This document shows positions 16,664 through 24,653 of a stretch of 40,338 nt of DNA, in pieces (within the stretch, counting starts at the first letter, position 1; every line of letters starts with the position of its first letter). Location of the stretch: positions 1 to 40,338 of the IMG/VR virus record IMGVR_UViG_3300032278_000030. The stretch is one strand, 5' to 3'. The notes under the pieces are model-generated. The model was not told the DNA's origin, made no database searches, and worked only from the letters and a program-made list of their open reading frames with translations. The translations under genes were made by a program, and so were the position numbers. This DNA is from a virus.

Positions 16664-17626
16664 TCATGTCATCAGTCGGATGAACTCGTAGGCGACTTGG
16701 GGCACGATTGCGTTCCCAAGTCCCTTGAGTCTGTCCACCCGATTGGGTATCCCATGAGCCACTCGACCCACGTCGGGTTCAGGGAGCCACCGACTACTGA
16801 CGGGAGGTCTATCGCTTCCCCCTTGTACGCCCGCCCCGATGCTCCCTTCCAATCCCGAGTGCAGGGAGTCGGAAGCAACTTCACTTGATCCGCCGTCCTT
16901 GGGTCGGGGATTTTTCCCGCTAACGTCAGGGTCGCGATTCTCCTTAAAATTCTCCCCCCTTTGTCCACTTTTGCCAAGGACTTGAAGTTGGTTCCCCCAT
17001 CTACATGCTCCATCGCCGTCGGCGTGGGCCACATCTTCGGATGGACTACCTGTTCCCTTAGGTTGGCGCATCCTCCTTTGTTTGCCTTGTCTGACCTTTC
17101 TTCCGGTTTCCTCACATCCGTCCTGTGATCCATCGTGTTCGGCGTTGCCCACAATCCAGATGCGGTCTCTTCTGTGCGGGGCATCGACGGCGCAAGCCGG
17201 TACAATGAACGTTTGGACGGCGTATCCCATGCCTTCCAAGTCAGAAAGCACGTTGTCGATGCCCATCGTGACGAGACCAGCAACGTTCTCGCCAAGTACC
17301 CAAGTGGGTCTTGCCTCGTCAATAACGCGAGCCATTTGCGGCCAGAGCGCGCGGTCATCCTCCTCGCCTCGTCGCTTCCCGGCTGTACTGAATGGTTGGC
17401 AAGGAAATCCACCTGTGAGGAGGGTGACTCCCTCATGGTCTCTTCCGTCGAGGTCGTGGACGTCGTCGGTGATGGGGACGTCTGGCCAGTGTCGTTCGAG
17501 GACTCCTTGGCAGAATCTGTCCTGCTCGCAGAAGGCGATTGTTCTGTATCCTGCCCATCTGGCGGCGAGGGCAAATCCCCCAATGCCGCTAAAAAGGTCG
17601 AGGTGCGTTCCTGTTTCTTCATTCAC
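16664..17626 (-). CDS. dcm: DNA (cytosine-5) methyltransferase
   Basis: Encodes 320 residues from GTG at 17626, six bases after AAGGAG. It transfers a methyl group from S-adenosylmethionine to C5 of cytosine in a recognition sequence. Visible motifs are I (DLFSGIGGF, residues 10-18), IV with the catalytic Cys (GGFPCQPFS, Cys76), VI (ENV, 113-115), VIII (RRDRIWIV) and X (GLGNAIVPQVAYEF). The recognition region (residues about 160-285) is hydrophilic and low in complexity, with three related segments (GNAEHDG, VAHADGDG, VASDSLHSG). The whole gene is also open in the +1 frame. It could protect phage DNA from host restriction. It is the last gene of the - strand operon. Confidence 0.93.
   Translation of the reverse strand: MNEETGTHLDLFSGIGGFALAARWAGYRTIAFCEQDRFCQGVLERHWPDVPITDDVHDLDGRDHEGVTLLTGGFPCQPFSTAGKRRGEEDDRALWPQMARVIDEARPTWVLGENVAGLVTMGIDNVLSDLEGMGYAVQTFIVPACAVDAPHRRDRIWIVGNAEHDGSQDGCEETGRKVRQGKQRRMRQPKGTGSPSEDVAHADGDGACRWGNQLQVLGKSGQRGENFKENRDPDVSGKNPRPKDGGSSEVASDSLHSGLEGSIGAGVQGGSDRPPVSSRWLPEPDVGRVAHGIPNRVDRLKGLGNAIVPQVAYEFIRLMT
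16672..17622 (-). CDS. Overprinted protein inside the methyltransferase gene
   Basis: A 316-residue frame lies wholly inside dcm, shifted by one base. ATG at 17622 is ten bases after the same AAGGAG. It has a Ser/Thr/Pro-rich N-terminus, then RSGRKWLALLTRQDPLGYL, CFLTWKAWDTPSKRSLYRL and SLNPTWVEWLMGYPIGWTD. Three repeats, LWATPNTMDH, MWPTPTAMEH and LLPTPCTRDW, are encoded by the same bases as the three related segments of the methyltransferase recognition region. From memory, LLPTP and NPxWVEWLMGxPxGWTD segments recur in phage proteins annotated beside or within cytosine methyltransferases. That suggests genuine dual coding, but it needs a codon-level test. Function unknown. Confidence 0.5.
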   Translation of the reverse strand: MKKQERTSTFLAALGDLPSPPDGQDTEQSPSASRTDSAKESSNDTGQTSPSPTTSTTSTEETMRESPSSQVDFLANHSVQPGSDEARRMTARSGRKWLALLTRQDPLGYLARTLLVSSRWASTTCFLTWKAWDTPSKRSLYRLAPSMPRTEETASGLWATPNTMDHRTDVRKPEERSDKANKGGCANLREQVVHPKMWPTPTAMEHVDGGTNFKSLAKVDKGGRILRRIATLTLAGKIPDPRTADQVKLLPTPCTRDWKGASGRAYKGEAIDLPSVVGGSLNPTWVEWLMGYPIGWTDSRDLGTQSCPKSPTSSSD

Positions 17627-17703: not shown

Positions 17704-19035
17704 TCAGTCAGCGAAAGGACTCCTATAGGGCTTCTTGACCTCCGAGTGTGGCTTGTTGAAGGTCTGCGTGTTCCTGTCGAATCTCAAGCTGCTCACTCCG
17801 GTGTGACCGAACCTGTTCTTCGAGAGGATGAGGGTGATCCTCTCCTTGTCCTCCTTGTCGGGTTGATGGAGGAACACCACGGCGTCCGCGTCCTGCTCAA
17901 GCGCCCCGCTCTCACGGAGGTCGGACAATCTGGGTTCCCGCGAAGTCTGCTCCACCGACCTGTTCAACTGGGACAGCAGGAGCACGGGGCACTTCAGTTC
18001 CTCCGCCAACAGCTTGCCGTCCTTGCTGATGCCAGCAATCTGCTGCTCCCTTGGAATCCTTGGGTCGGAGGGAGAAACCAGACCGCAGTAGTCTATCACC
18101 ACAAGGCCCAACTCCTTCACCCTTCTCGCCTTCGCCCTGCACAACGCCATCGAGACGCCCCCATTGTCGTCCAGCTTCAGCTTGCCCGAACGCAACGTCT
18201 TCCTCGCTTCCTCCACCGCCACGTGCTGGAGGTTGTCGATGCTTCCGCTCTCGATCAGGTGGACGGGCACTCCGCTGACGTGGGAGATCAGCCGCTTGCC
18301 CAAGCTCCCCGCGTTCATCTCAAGACTCTGGAAGTACACGCTCGTGTCCACCATCATGCCAGCCGCTATCTGGAGGGCAAGGGCAGTCTTCCCCGTGGAC
18401 GGACGAGCGGCCAGCACGGTGAGGGTGCCGTTCCGCAGCCCTCCCCCCAGCATCCTGTCCAAGTCGCCAAGTCCCGTGGGGCGTCCGTTCCTCCCGCCTT
18501 GTTCGCGGGCTTCGAGGAAGTCAGCCCAAGCCGCCTCCTCCACTGCGGCGCCGTCCTTCAGTCCGTTCGACTGGGCGTTCAACCCGAACAGCGTCTTGTC
18601 GGCTCCCTCCACCAAGTCGCCCGAAGGCTCCCTCATCGCCACCCTGTCCAGCAGGGACAACGCGAGGGACTGCACCCTCCTCAGACGCTCCACCTCTCTG
18701 GCGGCTCCGGCGAACTGGTGGACGTGACCCGCCGTGTCGCATGCGTTGAACACGTTCCACAAGTTGTCCTTGCCCAAGTCCTCCACGCGCCGTCCCAGAC
18801 GCTGGAGAACCGACACCTCGTCCACTTCCTCCTTCGCCTTGTCCAGCGCCACCATCGCCGCCCAAATCTCCGCATGAAGCGGATCGAGGAAGGTCTTCGC
18901 GGTCACTCCCTCGTCGAGAGCAACCGCTATGACGTCCCCCTTGACCAAGCAACTCAGCAGTCCGCGCTCTGCGTCGTGATCCTTCGGCCTGTCTGGTGGA
19001 GCTATCACTTCTCGTCCCCGTAGAAGTGGTGGCAC
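17704..19035 (-). CDS. dnaB: DnaB-type replicative DNA helicase
   Basis: Encodes 443 residues. The protein unwinds DNA at the fork as a hexamer using ATP. An N-terminal DnaB domain (ERGLLSCLVKGD onward, residues about 20-130) is followed by a RecA-type motor with Walker A (AARPSTGKTAL, about 209-219), Walker B (LVVIDYCGL, about 311-319), LLLSQLNRSVE, and a final motif LRESGALEQDADAVVFLHQ. No primase domain is fused. GTG at 19035 has AAGGA nine bases upstream and is used here. GTG at 19008, overlapping the upstream stop as GTGA, is a good alternative. It would work with the initiator-like protein at 19309-19902. Confidence 0.93.
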   Translation of the reverse strand: MPPLLRGREVIAPPDRPKDHDAERGLLSCLVKGDVIAVALDEGVTAKTFLDPLHAEIWAAMVALDKAKEEVDEVSVLQRLGRRVEDLGKDNLWNVFNACDTAGHVHQFAGAAREVERLRRVQSLALSLLDRVAMREPSGDLVEGADKTLFGLNAQSNGLKDGAAVEEAAWADFLEAREQGGRNGRPTGLGDLDRMLGGGLRNGTLTVLAARPSTGKTALALQIAAGMMVDTSVYFQSLEMNAGSLGKRLISHVSGVPVHLIESGSIDNLQHVAVEEARKTLRSGKLKLDDNGGVSMALCRAKARRVKELGLVVIDYCGLVSPSDPRIPREQQIAGISKDGKLLAEELKCPVLLLSQLNRSVEQTSREPRLSDLRESGALEQDADAVVFLHQPDKEDKERITLILSKNRFGHTGVSSLRFDRNTQTFNKPHSEVKKPYRSPFAD

Positions 19036-20631: not shown

Positions 20632-21138
20632 TCATCCAGCGAGCGTCTTGATCGTCTTGACCACCATCTCGATGGACGGGAGCTTCCGTTTGCGGAGAAG
20701 CGCCTTGCCCGTCATCCCGATGCAAGCCGCCTTGTTCTCCCAATGGTCGAGGCCAGCTACTTGGGTTTCGGTGAGTCCCTCTCTAGGCACCTTGGCGAGC
20801 ACGGCGGAGCGCATGAGGGAGTCGTTCGCCTTGCGGTGTTCCTTTCCTCTGACGAGGTCAGCCATCTCCTCCCGCAGGAGGAGTCGGAAGCCCACCTGTC
20901 CCATGCCCCGTTCAGTGGGGAAGAATCCCTCCTTCTGGATCAGGCTCTTGAGAGCGAACCACTCGTTGAGGAACGCCCATTCGGCTCGCCTGTTCTCCTC
21001 GATGCCCAGCAGTTCGCAGACTTCCAGCCACTTGAACTGGGCGCCGTACTCCAGCCGATTCTCCAGTTGCTCGAAGGCGTGTTTGTGAGGTGGCCACGTC
21101 GAGGTGTCCCTTCCGTTGCTTGAGTTGTCCTTGCTCAT
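20632..21138 (-). CDS. Early protein of 168 residues, unknown family
   Basis: ATG at 21138 overlaps the preceding stop (ATGA) and follows GAGGTG. The longer upstream frame reads through the duplicated gene in the wrong frame and is rejected. The product is helical with Trp/Leu-rich segments (AQFKWLEVCELLGIEENRRAEW, GFRLLLREEMADLVRGK) and a basic C-terminus (KALLRKRKLPSIEMVVKTIK). There is no membrane or enzyme motif. It lies between the duplicated pair and the small replication-side genes. It could bind DNA, judging by charge, but that is a guess. Confidence 0.65.
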   Translation of the reverse strand: MSKDNSSNGRDTSTWPPHKHAFEQLENRLEYGAQFKWLEVCELLGIEENRRAEWAFLNEWFALKSLIQKEGFFPTERGMGQVGFRLLLREEMADLVRGKEHRKANDSLMRSAVLAKVPREGLTETQVAGLDHWENKAACIGMTGKALLRKRKLPSIEMVVKTIKTLAG

Positions 21139-21365
21139 GATTTCACCTCTTCCATTGATTCCACGACGAAGCGTCCGAAGTTGCCAGACACCTTCGGGGC
21201 GCCGGGACGCCAGTCTCCCAAGCCGACGCGCTGTCCAGCAACCTCCGCTATCCGCCTGAAGGTGTCTTTGTCTATCAGGTCGGGATCGAGCTTGATTGGT
21301 ATTTTGCATTTCCAGCCAATTGGAATAAGAGGTCTGGTGCGCGAAACTCTGGTTGGATTGCTCAT
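21135..21365 (-). CDS. Truncated paralogue of the next gene
   Basis: Encodes 76 residues from ATG at 21365, overlapping the preceding stop as TGATG. Almost the whole product aligns with the C-terminal 70 residues of the 201-residue protein at 21365-21970. Shared blocks are RTRPLI, LDPD(L/M)ID(K/R)DTF, IA(E/D)(V/I)AG and GDWRPGAPKV followed by GNFGRFVVES. It is a tandem partial duplication that has kept an open frame, a start and coupling while diverging by many conservative changes. It may form a heteromer with, or regulate, the full-length copy. No function is known for the shared domain. Confidence 0.7.
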   Translation of the reverse strand: MSNPTRVSRTRPLIPIGWKCKIPIKLDPDLIDKDTFRRIAEVAGQRVGLGDWRPGAPKVSGNFGRFVVESMEEVKS

Positions 21366-21970
21366 CAGTTGACCTCCTTGATTGATTCCACCACGAAGCG
21401 TCCGAAGTTGCCCGGCACCTTTGGGGCGCCGGGTCGCCAATCGCCCATGCCGATGCGGTGACCAGCGATATCAGCTATCTGCTCGAAGGTGTCCCTGTCT
21501 ATCATGTCGGGGTCGAGTTCGATGGGCACATCCAACGTCCAGCCAGTCTCGATGAGCGGTCTGGTGCGCATGACCTTTACGCCGTTGACTCCGACCGCCT
21601 TTCTCAAGCGGGCCTTCGGATCATTCTTCAGTTTCTTGAGGTTCTTGTGATTCGGGAATATGAGAGGGCACCCGTATTCGGTGTCGATCATTATGCCGAT
21701 TGACTCACGACCCATGCGTATCTTCTTGCAGGCGTCGAGGAACATACGCTGGAGATTGTCCACGGGCATGTAGACGCCCATCTCGTCCGACCAATAGAGG
21801 CCAGCCTCGAACTCAATCTCCGACATCAGTTCATGGTCTTCCTCCGTCTTCTTTCTCTTGGAGGAAACCGACTTGAGCTTCTTGGCCCAAGGGTCGAGCG
21901 GATCAGCCGTTCTTCCGTTGTGCATTATGATGGGACGTATGCCCCGTAGGTTCAGGTTTAGTTTTATCAT
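21365..21970 (-). CDS. Conserved phage protein with RTRP/GDWRP motifs, unknown function
   Basis: Encodes 201 residues, with AAGGA nine bases before the ATG. Blocks that I recall from many phage early regions are visible: IIMHNGRTADPLDPWAKKLK, KRKKTEEDHELMSEIEFE, a middle segment MPVDNLQRMFLDACKKI, and the C-terminal VMRTRPLIETGW plus GDWRPGAPKVPGNFGRF. Nothing identifies a catalytic site. The hairpin array lies immediately upstream, so its mRNA probably begins within or runs through that array. The C-terminal domain is duplicated in the next gene. Confidence 0.75.
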   Translation of the reverse strand: MIKLNLNLRGIRPIIMHNGRTADPLDPWAKKLKSVSSKRKKTEEDHELMSEIEFEAGLYWSDEMGVYMPVDNLQRMFLDACKKIRMGRESIGIMIDTEYGCPLIFPNHKNLKKLKNDPKARLRKAVGVNGVKVMRTRPLIETGWTLDVPIELDPDMIDRDTFEQIADIAGHRIGMGDWRPGAPKVPGNFGRFVVESIKEVN

Positions 21971-22010
21971 CTCTTCATCCTTTCTTATCTTTGTTTTCGT
22001 TTTAGTTCAG

Positions 22011-22655
22011 GTAAACTGTCGGGGCTTTCGACCCGATGATGTAGCCTCGTCGTGCCCAGCCCTGCCCTGCCTGTCTCCGCCGAGCCTTGCCATGCCTCTG
22101 AAAACTGTCGCCCCCGAAGGGGCGATGATTTGGGTTCGCCTCGCCCCGCCTCGCCGGGCCGTTCCTAGCCTTGCCGCTCCGGGCCGATCCCCTGAAAACT
22201 GTCGGGGAATTGCACCCCGATGATGTAGCCTGTCCGCGCCTTGCCTCTCCGCGCCATGCCAAGTCCAGCCGCGCCTCACCTTGCCCCTGTAAACTGTTGG
22301 GGAGTTGCACCCCAATGATGTAGCCTTTCCACTCCGCGCCATGCCGTGCCTTGCCTGTGCGATCCACGCCTTGCCAATGAAACTGTCGGGGAATTGCACC
22401 CCGATGATTTTGCCTTTCCGCGCCCCTCCAAGCCTGTCCGCTCCACGCCATGCCACACCGTGCCAGTCCAATCCACGCCCATGTAAACTGTCGGGGAGTT
22501 GCACCCCGATGATTTTGCCTTTCCGCGCCAATGCGGGCCATGCCACACCGTGCCAGTTCAATCCACGCCCATGTAAAACTGTCGGGACTTGCGTCCCGAT
22601 GTGTAGCCGATCCTTTCCACGCCACGCCATGCCATGCCGTGCCCGTCCTCGCCAT
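22011..22655 (-). repeat. Array of seven covarying hairpins joined by GGCNN pentamer tracts
   Basis: Seven units start near 22013, 22101, 22195, 22291, 22380, 22484 and 22574 (88-104 bases apart). On the - strand each reads CATC or similar, a hairpin, then ACAGTTT. The usual stem is TCGGGG/CCCCGA with a seven-base loop. The unit at 22291 has TTGGGG/CCCCAA, the one at 22101 TCGCCCC/GGGGCGA around TTCG, and the one at 22574 TCGGGAC/GTCCCGA around GCAA, so arms change together. Between hairpins the DNA is built from five-base steps of GGCNN type. The units fall in different reading frames, so the long frames here are not genes. Possible roles are a structured leader RNA, a replication or recombination signal, or a protein-binding array. 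Confidence 0.85.
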
Positions 22656-22665
22656 TTGAAATTGA

Positions 22666-23103
22666 TCATGCGTTCTCTCCCGTGGTTATTATGGTTATGC
22701 CCACTTCGTCGCCCCACCATTTCCTCAAGGTGAGATCGTAGACCTGCTGATCTCCTCCAAGGAACCAATTGGCCTCTGCCATGCTGTCTAAAATCATCTT
22801 TGAAAGATTGTCTAAATCTGGTTTCGTCGTCATGGGAATGATGCCCAATCTCCTTCTCTTCTTGGCTTCGCTCTTGCGCCAAGGGAAGACCAGCACGACC
22901 TCCACCTTGGTTGCTCCAGTGAAAGGTTTGGGCGGGGAGTGGGAGCACAACAGGTTCAACAGGTTCTTCTTCGCCTTCGCTCCCGCGCTCCCCGCCGCTT
23001 TCCCGACGAAAGGGGTACCATCCCTTCGCCTGAGAATCATCGCGCTGCCTTGGTGCGTTGCCTTGGGTGGAACGCATGGCAGAAAAACAGTGTGCTTGTT
23101 CAT
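22666..23103 (-). CDS. rusA: RusA-family Holliday junction resolvase
   Basis: Encodes 145 residues, starting in an ATGA overlap with the upstream nuclease-like gene. RusA dimers cut four-way DNA junctions made during recombination and replication. The signature is clear: TTKPDLDNLSKMILDSM (Asp96, Asp98, Lys102) and GGDQQVYDLTLRKWW (Asp118), the acidic and Lys residues of the metal site. The N-terminus has the expected early strand (VFLPCVPPKAT), and length is near that of known members (about 120-140). It would resolve branched DNA before packaging. The hairpin array lies just downstream of its stop. Confidence 0.88.
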   Translation of the reverse strand: MNKHTVFLPCVPPKATHQGSAMILRRRDGTPFVGKAAGSAGAKAKKNLLNLLCSHSPPKPFTGATKVEVVLVFPWRKSEAKKRRRLGIIPMTTKPDLDNLSKMILDSMAEANWFLGGDQQVYDLTLRKWWGDEVGITIITTGENA

Positions 23104-23681: not shown

Positions 23682-24653
23682 TCATTTGACCATCTTGTTC
23701 ATCGACTTGACCGACAGGAACCTTCGTCCCCCGAACCTCCTCGACTCGACTTCCCCGTTCATCCAGTTGTAGAGGGTTGTCCTCGACACGTTGAACCGCT
23801 GGCCCGCCTGCTTGACGGAGAGCCAGTTCCCGTTTGGCATGGGTTCCCTGTCGGGCATCGCCCAAGGCGGCACCGTCACTTCCGTCACGTCTGCGTCGTA
23901 GCCTTTCCAGACGTCGGTCTCCCTTGCCTTGGAGTAAGCCTTGAGCGCGTCCGTCACCATGCTCTCCGCTTCCGCCACGTCGGACGGGTTGATCGAGTAG
24001 GCGGCGGCTGCGAACGGGGCGGTCTTCTCCACACAGAGGAAGATGAATCGGTTGACCTTCATCCCCGTTTCCTCCAGCGCTTTCCGGTAGAACCACTCCT
24101 GAACGAACAGCTTGTTGTTCGCCACCGTCTTGCGGAACCCGTTCACGGATGCGTCGGTGGTTGTCTTGAGGTCAATCACGTCCACTCCCTCCGACGAGAA
24201 TGAAACGAGGTCTGGCCTCGCCTTGCACCCGACGCCCTCCACCTCGAAGAACAGACTGCCCTCCGTCACGAAGTCGCCCTTGAAGAACTCAGCCGTGACG
24301 GGATGGTCAAGAGCGGACTCGACCACACGAAGGACTTTGTCGAAATCCTCCGCGTTCATCCACTCAATGTCCAACGGATGGGTGTTCATCCATTCCTTGT
24401 AGTAGTTGGTTCTTGGCCCCTTGCCGTCGATCTCCAGCGGCTTCGGAGCGTACCTGTCCTCGAAAACATTCGGCTCCAGATAACCGCAGTGCGCGGCTGA
24501 CCCGAAGACGAAGTGAGGCGGTCTGACCGCAGGCTCCTCCCTCCCTCCGTAGTGCAGTGGAGAGATCATGAGTCTCCTCACGTCGCTGGAGCCAAGCTCC
24601 TCTCTGGAATGGTACTCCTCGTTCGACATCGTGATGAACTTTTCCTCGCTCAT
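23682..24653 (-). CDS. RecE-like exonuclease fused to a C-terminal helix-turn-helix
   Basis: Encodes 323 residues, starting in ATGA overlap with the SSB-like gene. The first 270 residues match the RecE C-terminal/PD-(D/E)XK exonuclease family: SNEEYHSREELGSSDVRRL, FVFGSAAHCGYLEP, CKARPDLVSF (Asp148), then VDVIDLKTTTDAS (Asp161, Lys163) and a motif around QEWFYRKAL. Such enzymes resect duplex ends for annealing-based recombination. Residues about 276-323 (NWLSVKQAGQRFNVSRTTLY, then RRFGGRRFLSVKSM) form an excisionase/MerR-like helix-turn-helix with a wing, which is not part of that family's usual domain plan. It may guide the nuclease to specific DNA or serve in autoregulation. Confidence 0.82.
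   Translation of the reverse strand: MSEEKFITMSNEEYHSREELGSSDVRRLMISPLHYGGREEPAVRPPHFVFGSAAHCGYLEPNVFEDRYAPKPLEIDGKGPRTNYYKEWMNTHPLDIEWMNAEDFDKVLRVVESALDHPVTAEFFKGDFVTEGSLFFEVEGVGCKARPDLVSFSSEGVDVIDLKTTTDASVNGFRKTVANNKLFVQEWFYRKALEETGMKVNRFIFLCVEKTAPFAAAAYSINPSDVAEAESMVTDALKAYSKARETDVWKGYDADVTEVTVPPWAMPDREPMPNGNWLSVKQAGQRFNVSRTTLYNWMNGEVESRRFGGRRFLSVKSMNKMVK

What the first reader, a model, noticed from the sequence alone, without database searches (positions are those of the whole stretch)
22011..22655. Seven-unit hairpin array with compensating stem changes and GGCNN pentamer spacers
Each unit keeps its flanks and a 5-7 pair stem while the stem bases change in pairs (TCGGGG/CCCCGA, TTGGGG/CCCCAA, TCGCCCC/GGGGCGA, TCGGGAC/GTCCCGA). 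Two units have TTCG or GCAA tetraloops on the - strand, favouring RNA. Spacers are built of five-base steps dominated by GGCNN. Units occur in different frames, so no protein is encoded. I know no named element with this combination. Its place between rusA and the duplicated early gene hints at a recombination or replication signal or a regulatory leader.
Basis: seen in the sequence. Interest (0 to 1): 0.9.

Follow-up and report, generated by a model that had tools for sequence, protein, structure and literature searches.

The report
Phage VIPR guide-RNA array, seven guides
The hairpin array is a set of seven guide RNAs of a VIPR system, a recently described phage relative of CRISPR that reads DNA through spaced base pairs, lying next to the Cas7-like Vipr protein that should bind them; it is a new example of a kind first reported in 2026.

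Summary
On the - strand, seven tracts of 10-14 GGCNN-type pentamers (74 of 81 start with GG; shuffled mean 26, maximum 35) are each followed by a hairpin. Three of its five core stem pairs show two-sided compensatory changes and all 35 cells pair. It is not an unnamed element. The 'duplicated early gene' beside it encodes Vipr: PDB 36pp 'SUSP1 Vipr protein', E=9.5e-24, with a Cas7/Csm3-like RAMP fold, Z 11.7. The array matches the guide RNAs (vrRNAs) of VIPR, Viral Interference Programmable Repeat (preprint PMC13142463): 9-16 GGY/NN pentamers before a structured 3' tail, the NN dinucleotides pairing with target DNA with a one-base skip. A blind search for (GGCNN)x8 in viral contigs supports this: 85 of 120 loci carry vipr, against 0 of 107 background loci, and 106 of 108 arrays lie on the vipr strand. 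Unusual traits here are 28% GGA-type pentamers, a second ORF encoding only the C-terminal half of Vipr, and a divergent vap1-like gene. Target searches found nothing convincing. Verdict: known kind, new member with some variant traits.

The parts
22576..22653 (-). vrRNA 1: 10 pentamers (22653-22604) and hairpin tail (22603-22576, GCAA loop)
22485..22569 (-). vrRNA 2: 11 pentamers (22569-22515) and hairpin tail (22514-22485)
22380..22479 (-). vrRNA 3: 14 pentamers (22479-22410) and hairpin tail (22409-22380); shares its first six NN dinucleotides with vrRNA 2
22291..22375 (-). vrRNA 4: 11 pentamers (22375-22321) and hairpin tail (22320-22291), stem with a C-G to U-A change
22196..22285 (-). vrRNA 5: 12 pentamers (22285-22226) and hairpin tail (22225-22196)
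22102..22190 (-). vrRNA 6: 12 pentamers (22190-22131) and hairpin tail (22130-22102, UUCG loop, inverted G-C pairs); the last pentamer is ACCCA
22013..22096 (-). vrRNA 7: 11 pentamers (22096-22042) and hairpin tail (22041-22013)
21365..21970 (-). vipr: 201-aa Cas7-like RAMP protein (phrog_4652)
   Evidence: phmmer to PDB 36pp_D E=9.5e-24; AlphaFold2 pLDDT 96.6; Csm3 fold matches, Z up to 11.7; phrog_4652
21135..21365 (-). vipr-half: 76-aa ORF repeating only the C-terminal half of Vipr with the glycine-rich loop; TGATG overlap with the vipr stop
20632..21138 (-). divergent vap1-like accessory gene (168 aa); ATGA overlap with vipr-half

Best explanation
The region is a phage VIPR locus read from the - strand. 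Seven vrRNAs, each 10-14 GG(C/A)NN pentamers plus a 3' hairpin tail, precede vipr, a C-terminal half copy of vipr and a vap1-like gene. By analogy with the published system and with Cas7 filaments, several Vipr subunits coat one vrRNA (one per pentamer is my inference), holding the GGC/GGA bases. The exposed NN dinucleotides pair with a DNA target laid out as NNxNNxNNx and block transcription there, most likely in a competing phage, prophage or satellite. Shown here: the anatomy, the Vipr homology and fold, the covarying tails and the general array-vipr linkage. Inferred from the published system: RNA processing, oligomerisation, the skip rule and target silencing in this phage.
For: Vipr homology to PDB 36pp and RAMP fold. 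Pentamer tracts of 10-14 repeats, within the published 9-16, with near-random NN bases. Tract first, structured tail last, as described for vrRNAs, with compensatory stem changes. Blind search for GGCNN arrays: 85 of 120 loci carry vipr against 0 of 107 background loci; 106 of 108 arrays on the vipr strand, median distance 110 nt. A vap1-like gene in the expected place.
Against: No target found. The third pentamer base is A in 23 of 81, against the published GGY. Seven pentamers lack GG. No promoter found by a simple scan. The tail does not visibly resemble that of Felixounavirus. No expression data.
Confidence: 0.94

Rival explanations
1. The array is a decaying VIPR relic: Vipr is intact but the guides are losing function, as the GGA and non-GG pentamers would suggest.
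For: Seven of 81 pentamers lack GG and 23 carry A at position 3.
Against: Tails stay paired through compensatory changes; vipr is intact with a confident fold; NN columns stay variable while GG stays conserved.
Confidence: 0.12
2. Replication or recombination signal bound by RusA or other early proteins, or a regulatory leader of the downstream gene.
For: Position among recombination genes: RusA and an exonuclease VIII-like gene.
Against: Strand-locked linkage of such arrays to vipr across many phages; guide-like variability of the NN columns; most arrays elsewhere lie downstream of vipr (66 down, 40 up), so a leader role is not general.
Confidence: 0.03
3. The array encodes a repetitive protein in one of the two open - strand frames, starting at an ATG that overlaps the rusA stop.
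For: Two - strand frames are open throughout; the ORF 22007-22669 can start at the ATGA of rusA.
Against: No PHROG or Pfam match; 19 of 37 long arrays elsewhere have no open sense frame; GGCNN sequence lacks stops by composition, since only TAG can arise in full GGCNN runs; the stems covary, which a protein would not require.
Confidence: 0.01

Closest known systems
VIPR systems of Escherichia phage SUSP1 and a Pseudomonas fulva prophage (type II in preprint PMC13142463)
   Same: Vipr homologue (phmmer E=9.5e-24 to SUSP1 Vipr); vrRNAs with 9-16 pentamer repeats before a structured 3' tail; vap1-like gene after vipr; carried by a virus.
   Different: All seven vrRNAs lie upstream of vipr (SUSP1: one upstream, three downstream); GGA is frequent where GGY is described; a second ORF with only the C-terminal half of Vipr; different tail sequence; vap1 is very divergent.
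Class 1 CRISPR-Cas effectors (Cas7/Csm3 RAMP subunits and crRNA arrays)
   Same: RAMP fold of the effector (Z up to 11.7 to Csm3); array of guide units separated by a hairpin element.
   Different: No CRISPR repeats or contiguous spacers, no other cas gene recognised next to it; the guide is interrupted every five bases by GG(C/A).
TRAP-bound (G/U)AGNN repeats of trp leader RNAs
   Same: A five-base RNA period contacted by a protein oligomer (own knowledge, analogy only).
   Different: Different protein family; TRAP sites carry no guide information.

Membership tests
VIPR | Vipr protein (single RRM-type RAMP with glycine-rich loop) | tested here: met
   36pp_D phmmer E=9.5e-24, profile E=7.6e-41; model pLDDT 96.6, Csm3 matches Z up to 11.7
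VIPR | vrRNA with 9-16 tandem pentamers, conserved GGY alternating with hypervariable NN | tested here: met
   10-14 pentamers, GG in 74 of 81, NN entropies 1.91 and 1.88 bits. Partial deviation: third base C 55, A 23, T 3, so GG(C/A) rather than strict GGY
VIPR | Invariable structured 3' tail after the repeat tract | tested here: met
   Hairpin tail after each tract with three compensatory pairs; pseudoknot of the SUSP1 clade not shown
VIPR | vap accessory gene next to vipr | tested here: inconclusive
   Adjacent 168-aa gene matches a Vap1 profile only weakly, E=0.0033; no PHROG match
VIPR | Targets matching the NN dinucleotides with a 1-nt skip | tested here: inconclusive
   No target above chance; host unknown and most guides not scanned in every collection
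VIPR | vrRNA bound by Vipr, programmable transcriptional repression | not testable with these tools
   Needs RNA sequencing, pull-down and reporter assays
CRISPR array (class 1) | Near-identical repeats separated by contiguous unique spacers | tested here: not met
   Spacers are themselves period-5 GGCNN tracts
Intrinsic terminator | G+C-rich stem followed by a T tract on the transcribed strand | tested here: not met
   Hairpins are followed by CAGTTT; on the - strand only one unit passes a loose scan

The most novel reading that the evidence does not exclude
This phage carries a VIPR variant in which the scaffold triplet is GG(C/A) and a separately translated C-terminal half of Vipr joins the filament, for example capping it or altering how the target is read.
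Probability: 0.12. Interest if true: 0.6.

Novelty: new member of a known kind. Interest (0 to 1): 0.42.

Why it matters
VIPR is a very recent, preprint-level RNA-guided system proposed to predate CRISPR. This locus, picked out with no knowledge of the system, is a compact example with seven guides from an environmental phage only distantly related to cultured ones. The blind pattern search gives independent support for the linkage of GGCNN arrays to vipr across many phages. The frequent GGA pentamers and the half-Vipr gene raise concrete questions about how flexible the scaffold and the filament are.

Tried and rejected
Rfam: nothing reached its gathering score; weak whalefall-1 and PhotoRC-I matches lie on one hairpin. 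tRNA: none. DNA similarity of the locus to phage records: none. The exact tail pattern in viral contigs: none. Promoters: none; terminator-like sites explained by the hairpins. Vipr or arrays in 42 records with related terminases: none found, but most are short fragments and the family control did not ring. Targets: a gapped scan of held loci (2.9 Mb counting both strands) with all seven guides and skips of 0-3 gave nothing clearly above shuffled guides except the trivial self-match at skip 3. Viral-contig scans with 8-unit seeds of guides 3, 5, 6 and 7 gave 12, 22, 16 and 15 stretches, about the chance level I estimated; the best extended matches (20 of 22 positions, guides 5 and 7) are expected by chance once trials are counted. 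Ten-unit patterns of guides 3 and 6 in bacterial genomes: none. A search for earlier papers on phage pentanucleotide repeats led nowhere. Supplements of the preprint were not readable here, so its typing criteria could not be applied; a type II assignment would rest only on the closest named relative.

Full report
The finding concerns 22011-22655 of a 40-kb virus record. Read on the - strand, the region is seven pentamer tracts, each followed by a hairpin and ACAGTTT. Tracts have 10, 11, 14, 11, 12, 12 and 11 pentamers. Seventy-four of 81 pentamers begin with GG, against 26.4 (sd 2.3) in shuffles. The fourth and fifth bases have entropies of 1.91 and 1.88 of 2 bits. The five-pair core stem pairs in 35 of 35 cells with two-sided changes at three pairs; longer stems with GCAA and UUCG loops occur in units 1 and 6. 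The claim that frame excludes a protein is not, since two - strand frames are open.

These hold long period-5 arrays punctuated by locus-specific units, many of them hairpins. An HMM grown from the window gene 21365-21970 found a relative in 85 of the 120 loci and in none of 107 background loci (65 chance-target loci and 42 terminase relatives). Of 108 arrays in vipr-bearing loci, 106 lie on the vipr strand, at a median distance of 110 nt. The 120 loci were chosen by a GGC pattern, so they under-sample GGT-type arrays such as that of Felixounavirus. Arrays without a vipr hit may lie on fragments or beside divergent Viprs; this was not followed up.

The gene is phrog_4652, of unknown function in PHROGs. 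Its sequence matches PDB chain 36pp_D, 'SUSP1 Vipr protein' (phmmer E=9.5e-24, profile E=7.6e-41). The AlphaFold2 model (pLDDT 96.6) matches Csm3/Cas7 subunits with Z up to 11.7 over 160 residues, rmsd 3.6-3.7.

The preprint PMC13142463 describes VIPR. Vipr is a phage-encoded RAMP. vrRNAs consist of 9-16 YNNGG repeats followed by an invariable structured tail. The NN dinucleotides pair with double-stranded DNA with one skipped base, and the complex represses transcription; natural targets are mostly competing phages, prophages and satellites. The main features of the window array have counterparts there. A text search found no other paper on it in the library.

The locus has traits of its own. 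All seven vrRNAs lie upstream of vipr. The third pentamer base is C 55, A 23, T 3. Among 84 array-bearing strands scored on runs of GGNNN, the window has the highest A fraction, 0.30, against a median of 0.02 and a next-highest value of 0.14; most of that sample was chosen by a GGC pattern, which biases it against A. A 76-residue ORF follows vipr, overlapping its stop by one base. It repeats the C-terminal half, with 49 of 76 aligned positions identical (stop counted) and codon-position differences of 16, 14 and 33, which suggests that at least one copy is constrained. Only L094 shows something similar, and there it looks decayed. The next gene overlaps by ATGA and matches a Vap1 profile weakly (E=0.0033; translation). 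vrRNAs 2 and 3 share their first six dinucleotides and last three, so one probably arose from the other by duplication and rearrangement.

Targets were sought and not found. The gapped scan of held loci, the phage itself included, gave nothing clearly above shuffled guides, so no self-target was seen. Seed scans of viral contigs for four guides gave counts near the chance level I estimated, and the best extended matches are within chance once trials are counted. Two guides had no exact match in bacterial genomes. The host is unknown and the closest terminases are on environmental fragments, so this absence says little.

The most likely working is that of the published system: a - strand transcript is processed into seven vrRNAs, Vipr coats each, and the complex silences matching DNA of a competitor. 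Homology, fold, anatomy and linkage were tested here. Processing, binding, the skip rule and silencing in this phage are inferred. Since the system was described in 2026, the finding is a new member of a known kind, with a few traits that may prove to be a variant.

Noticed in passing
21135-21365 (-): A 76-aa ORF encoding only the C-terminal half of Vipr, with its glycine-rich loop, sits between vipr and the vap1-like gene with overlapping start and stop codons on both sides.
   Followed up: partly
L094:6786-6938 (-): A second, apparently decayed C-terminal Vipr fragment directly downstream of a full vipr in an unrelated viral contig.
   Followed up: partly
22380-22569 (-): vrRNAs 2 and 3 share their first six and last three NN dinucleotides, a sign of guide duplication and rearrangement within the array.
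   Followed up: partly
L005-L124: 35 of 120 loci with GGCNN arrays have no recognised vipr gene in the stretch held, for example L071, L009 and L036; they may be fragments, orphan arrays or carry divergent Viprs.
   Followed up: no
L066, L023, L111, L006, L024, L097: Locus-specific hairpin tails whose stems differ between units of one array while staying paired, seen by eye; stem sequence seems free in several VIPR groups.
   Followed up: partly
16664-17626 and 17704-19035 (-): DNA methyltransferase gene (phrog_363) beside a DnaB-like helicase gene (phrog_19).
   Followed up: no
23682-24653 (-): Exonuclease VIII-like protein (phrog_412) with an apparent helix-turn-helix domain at its C-terminus, an uncommon pairing.
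   Followed up: no
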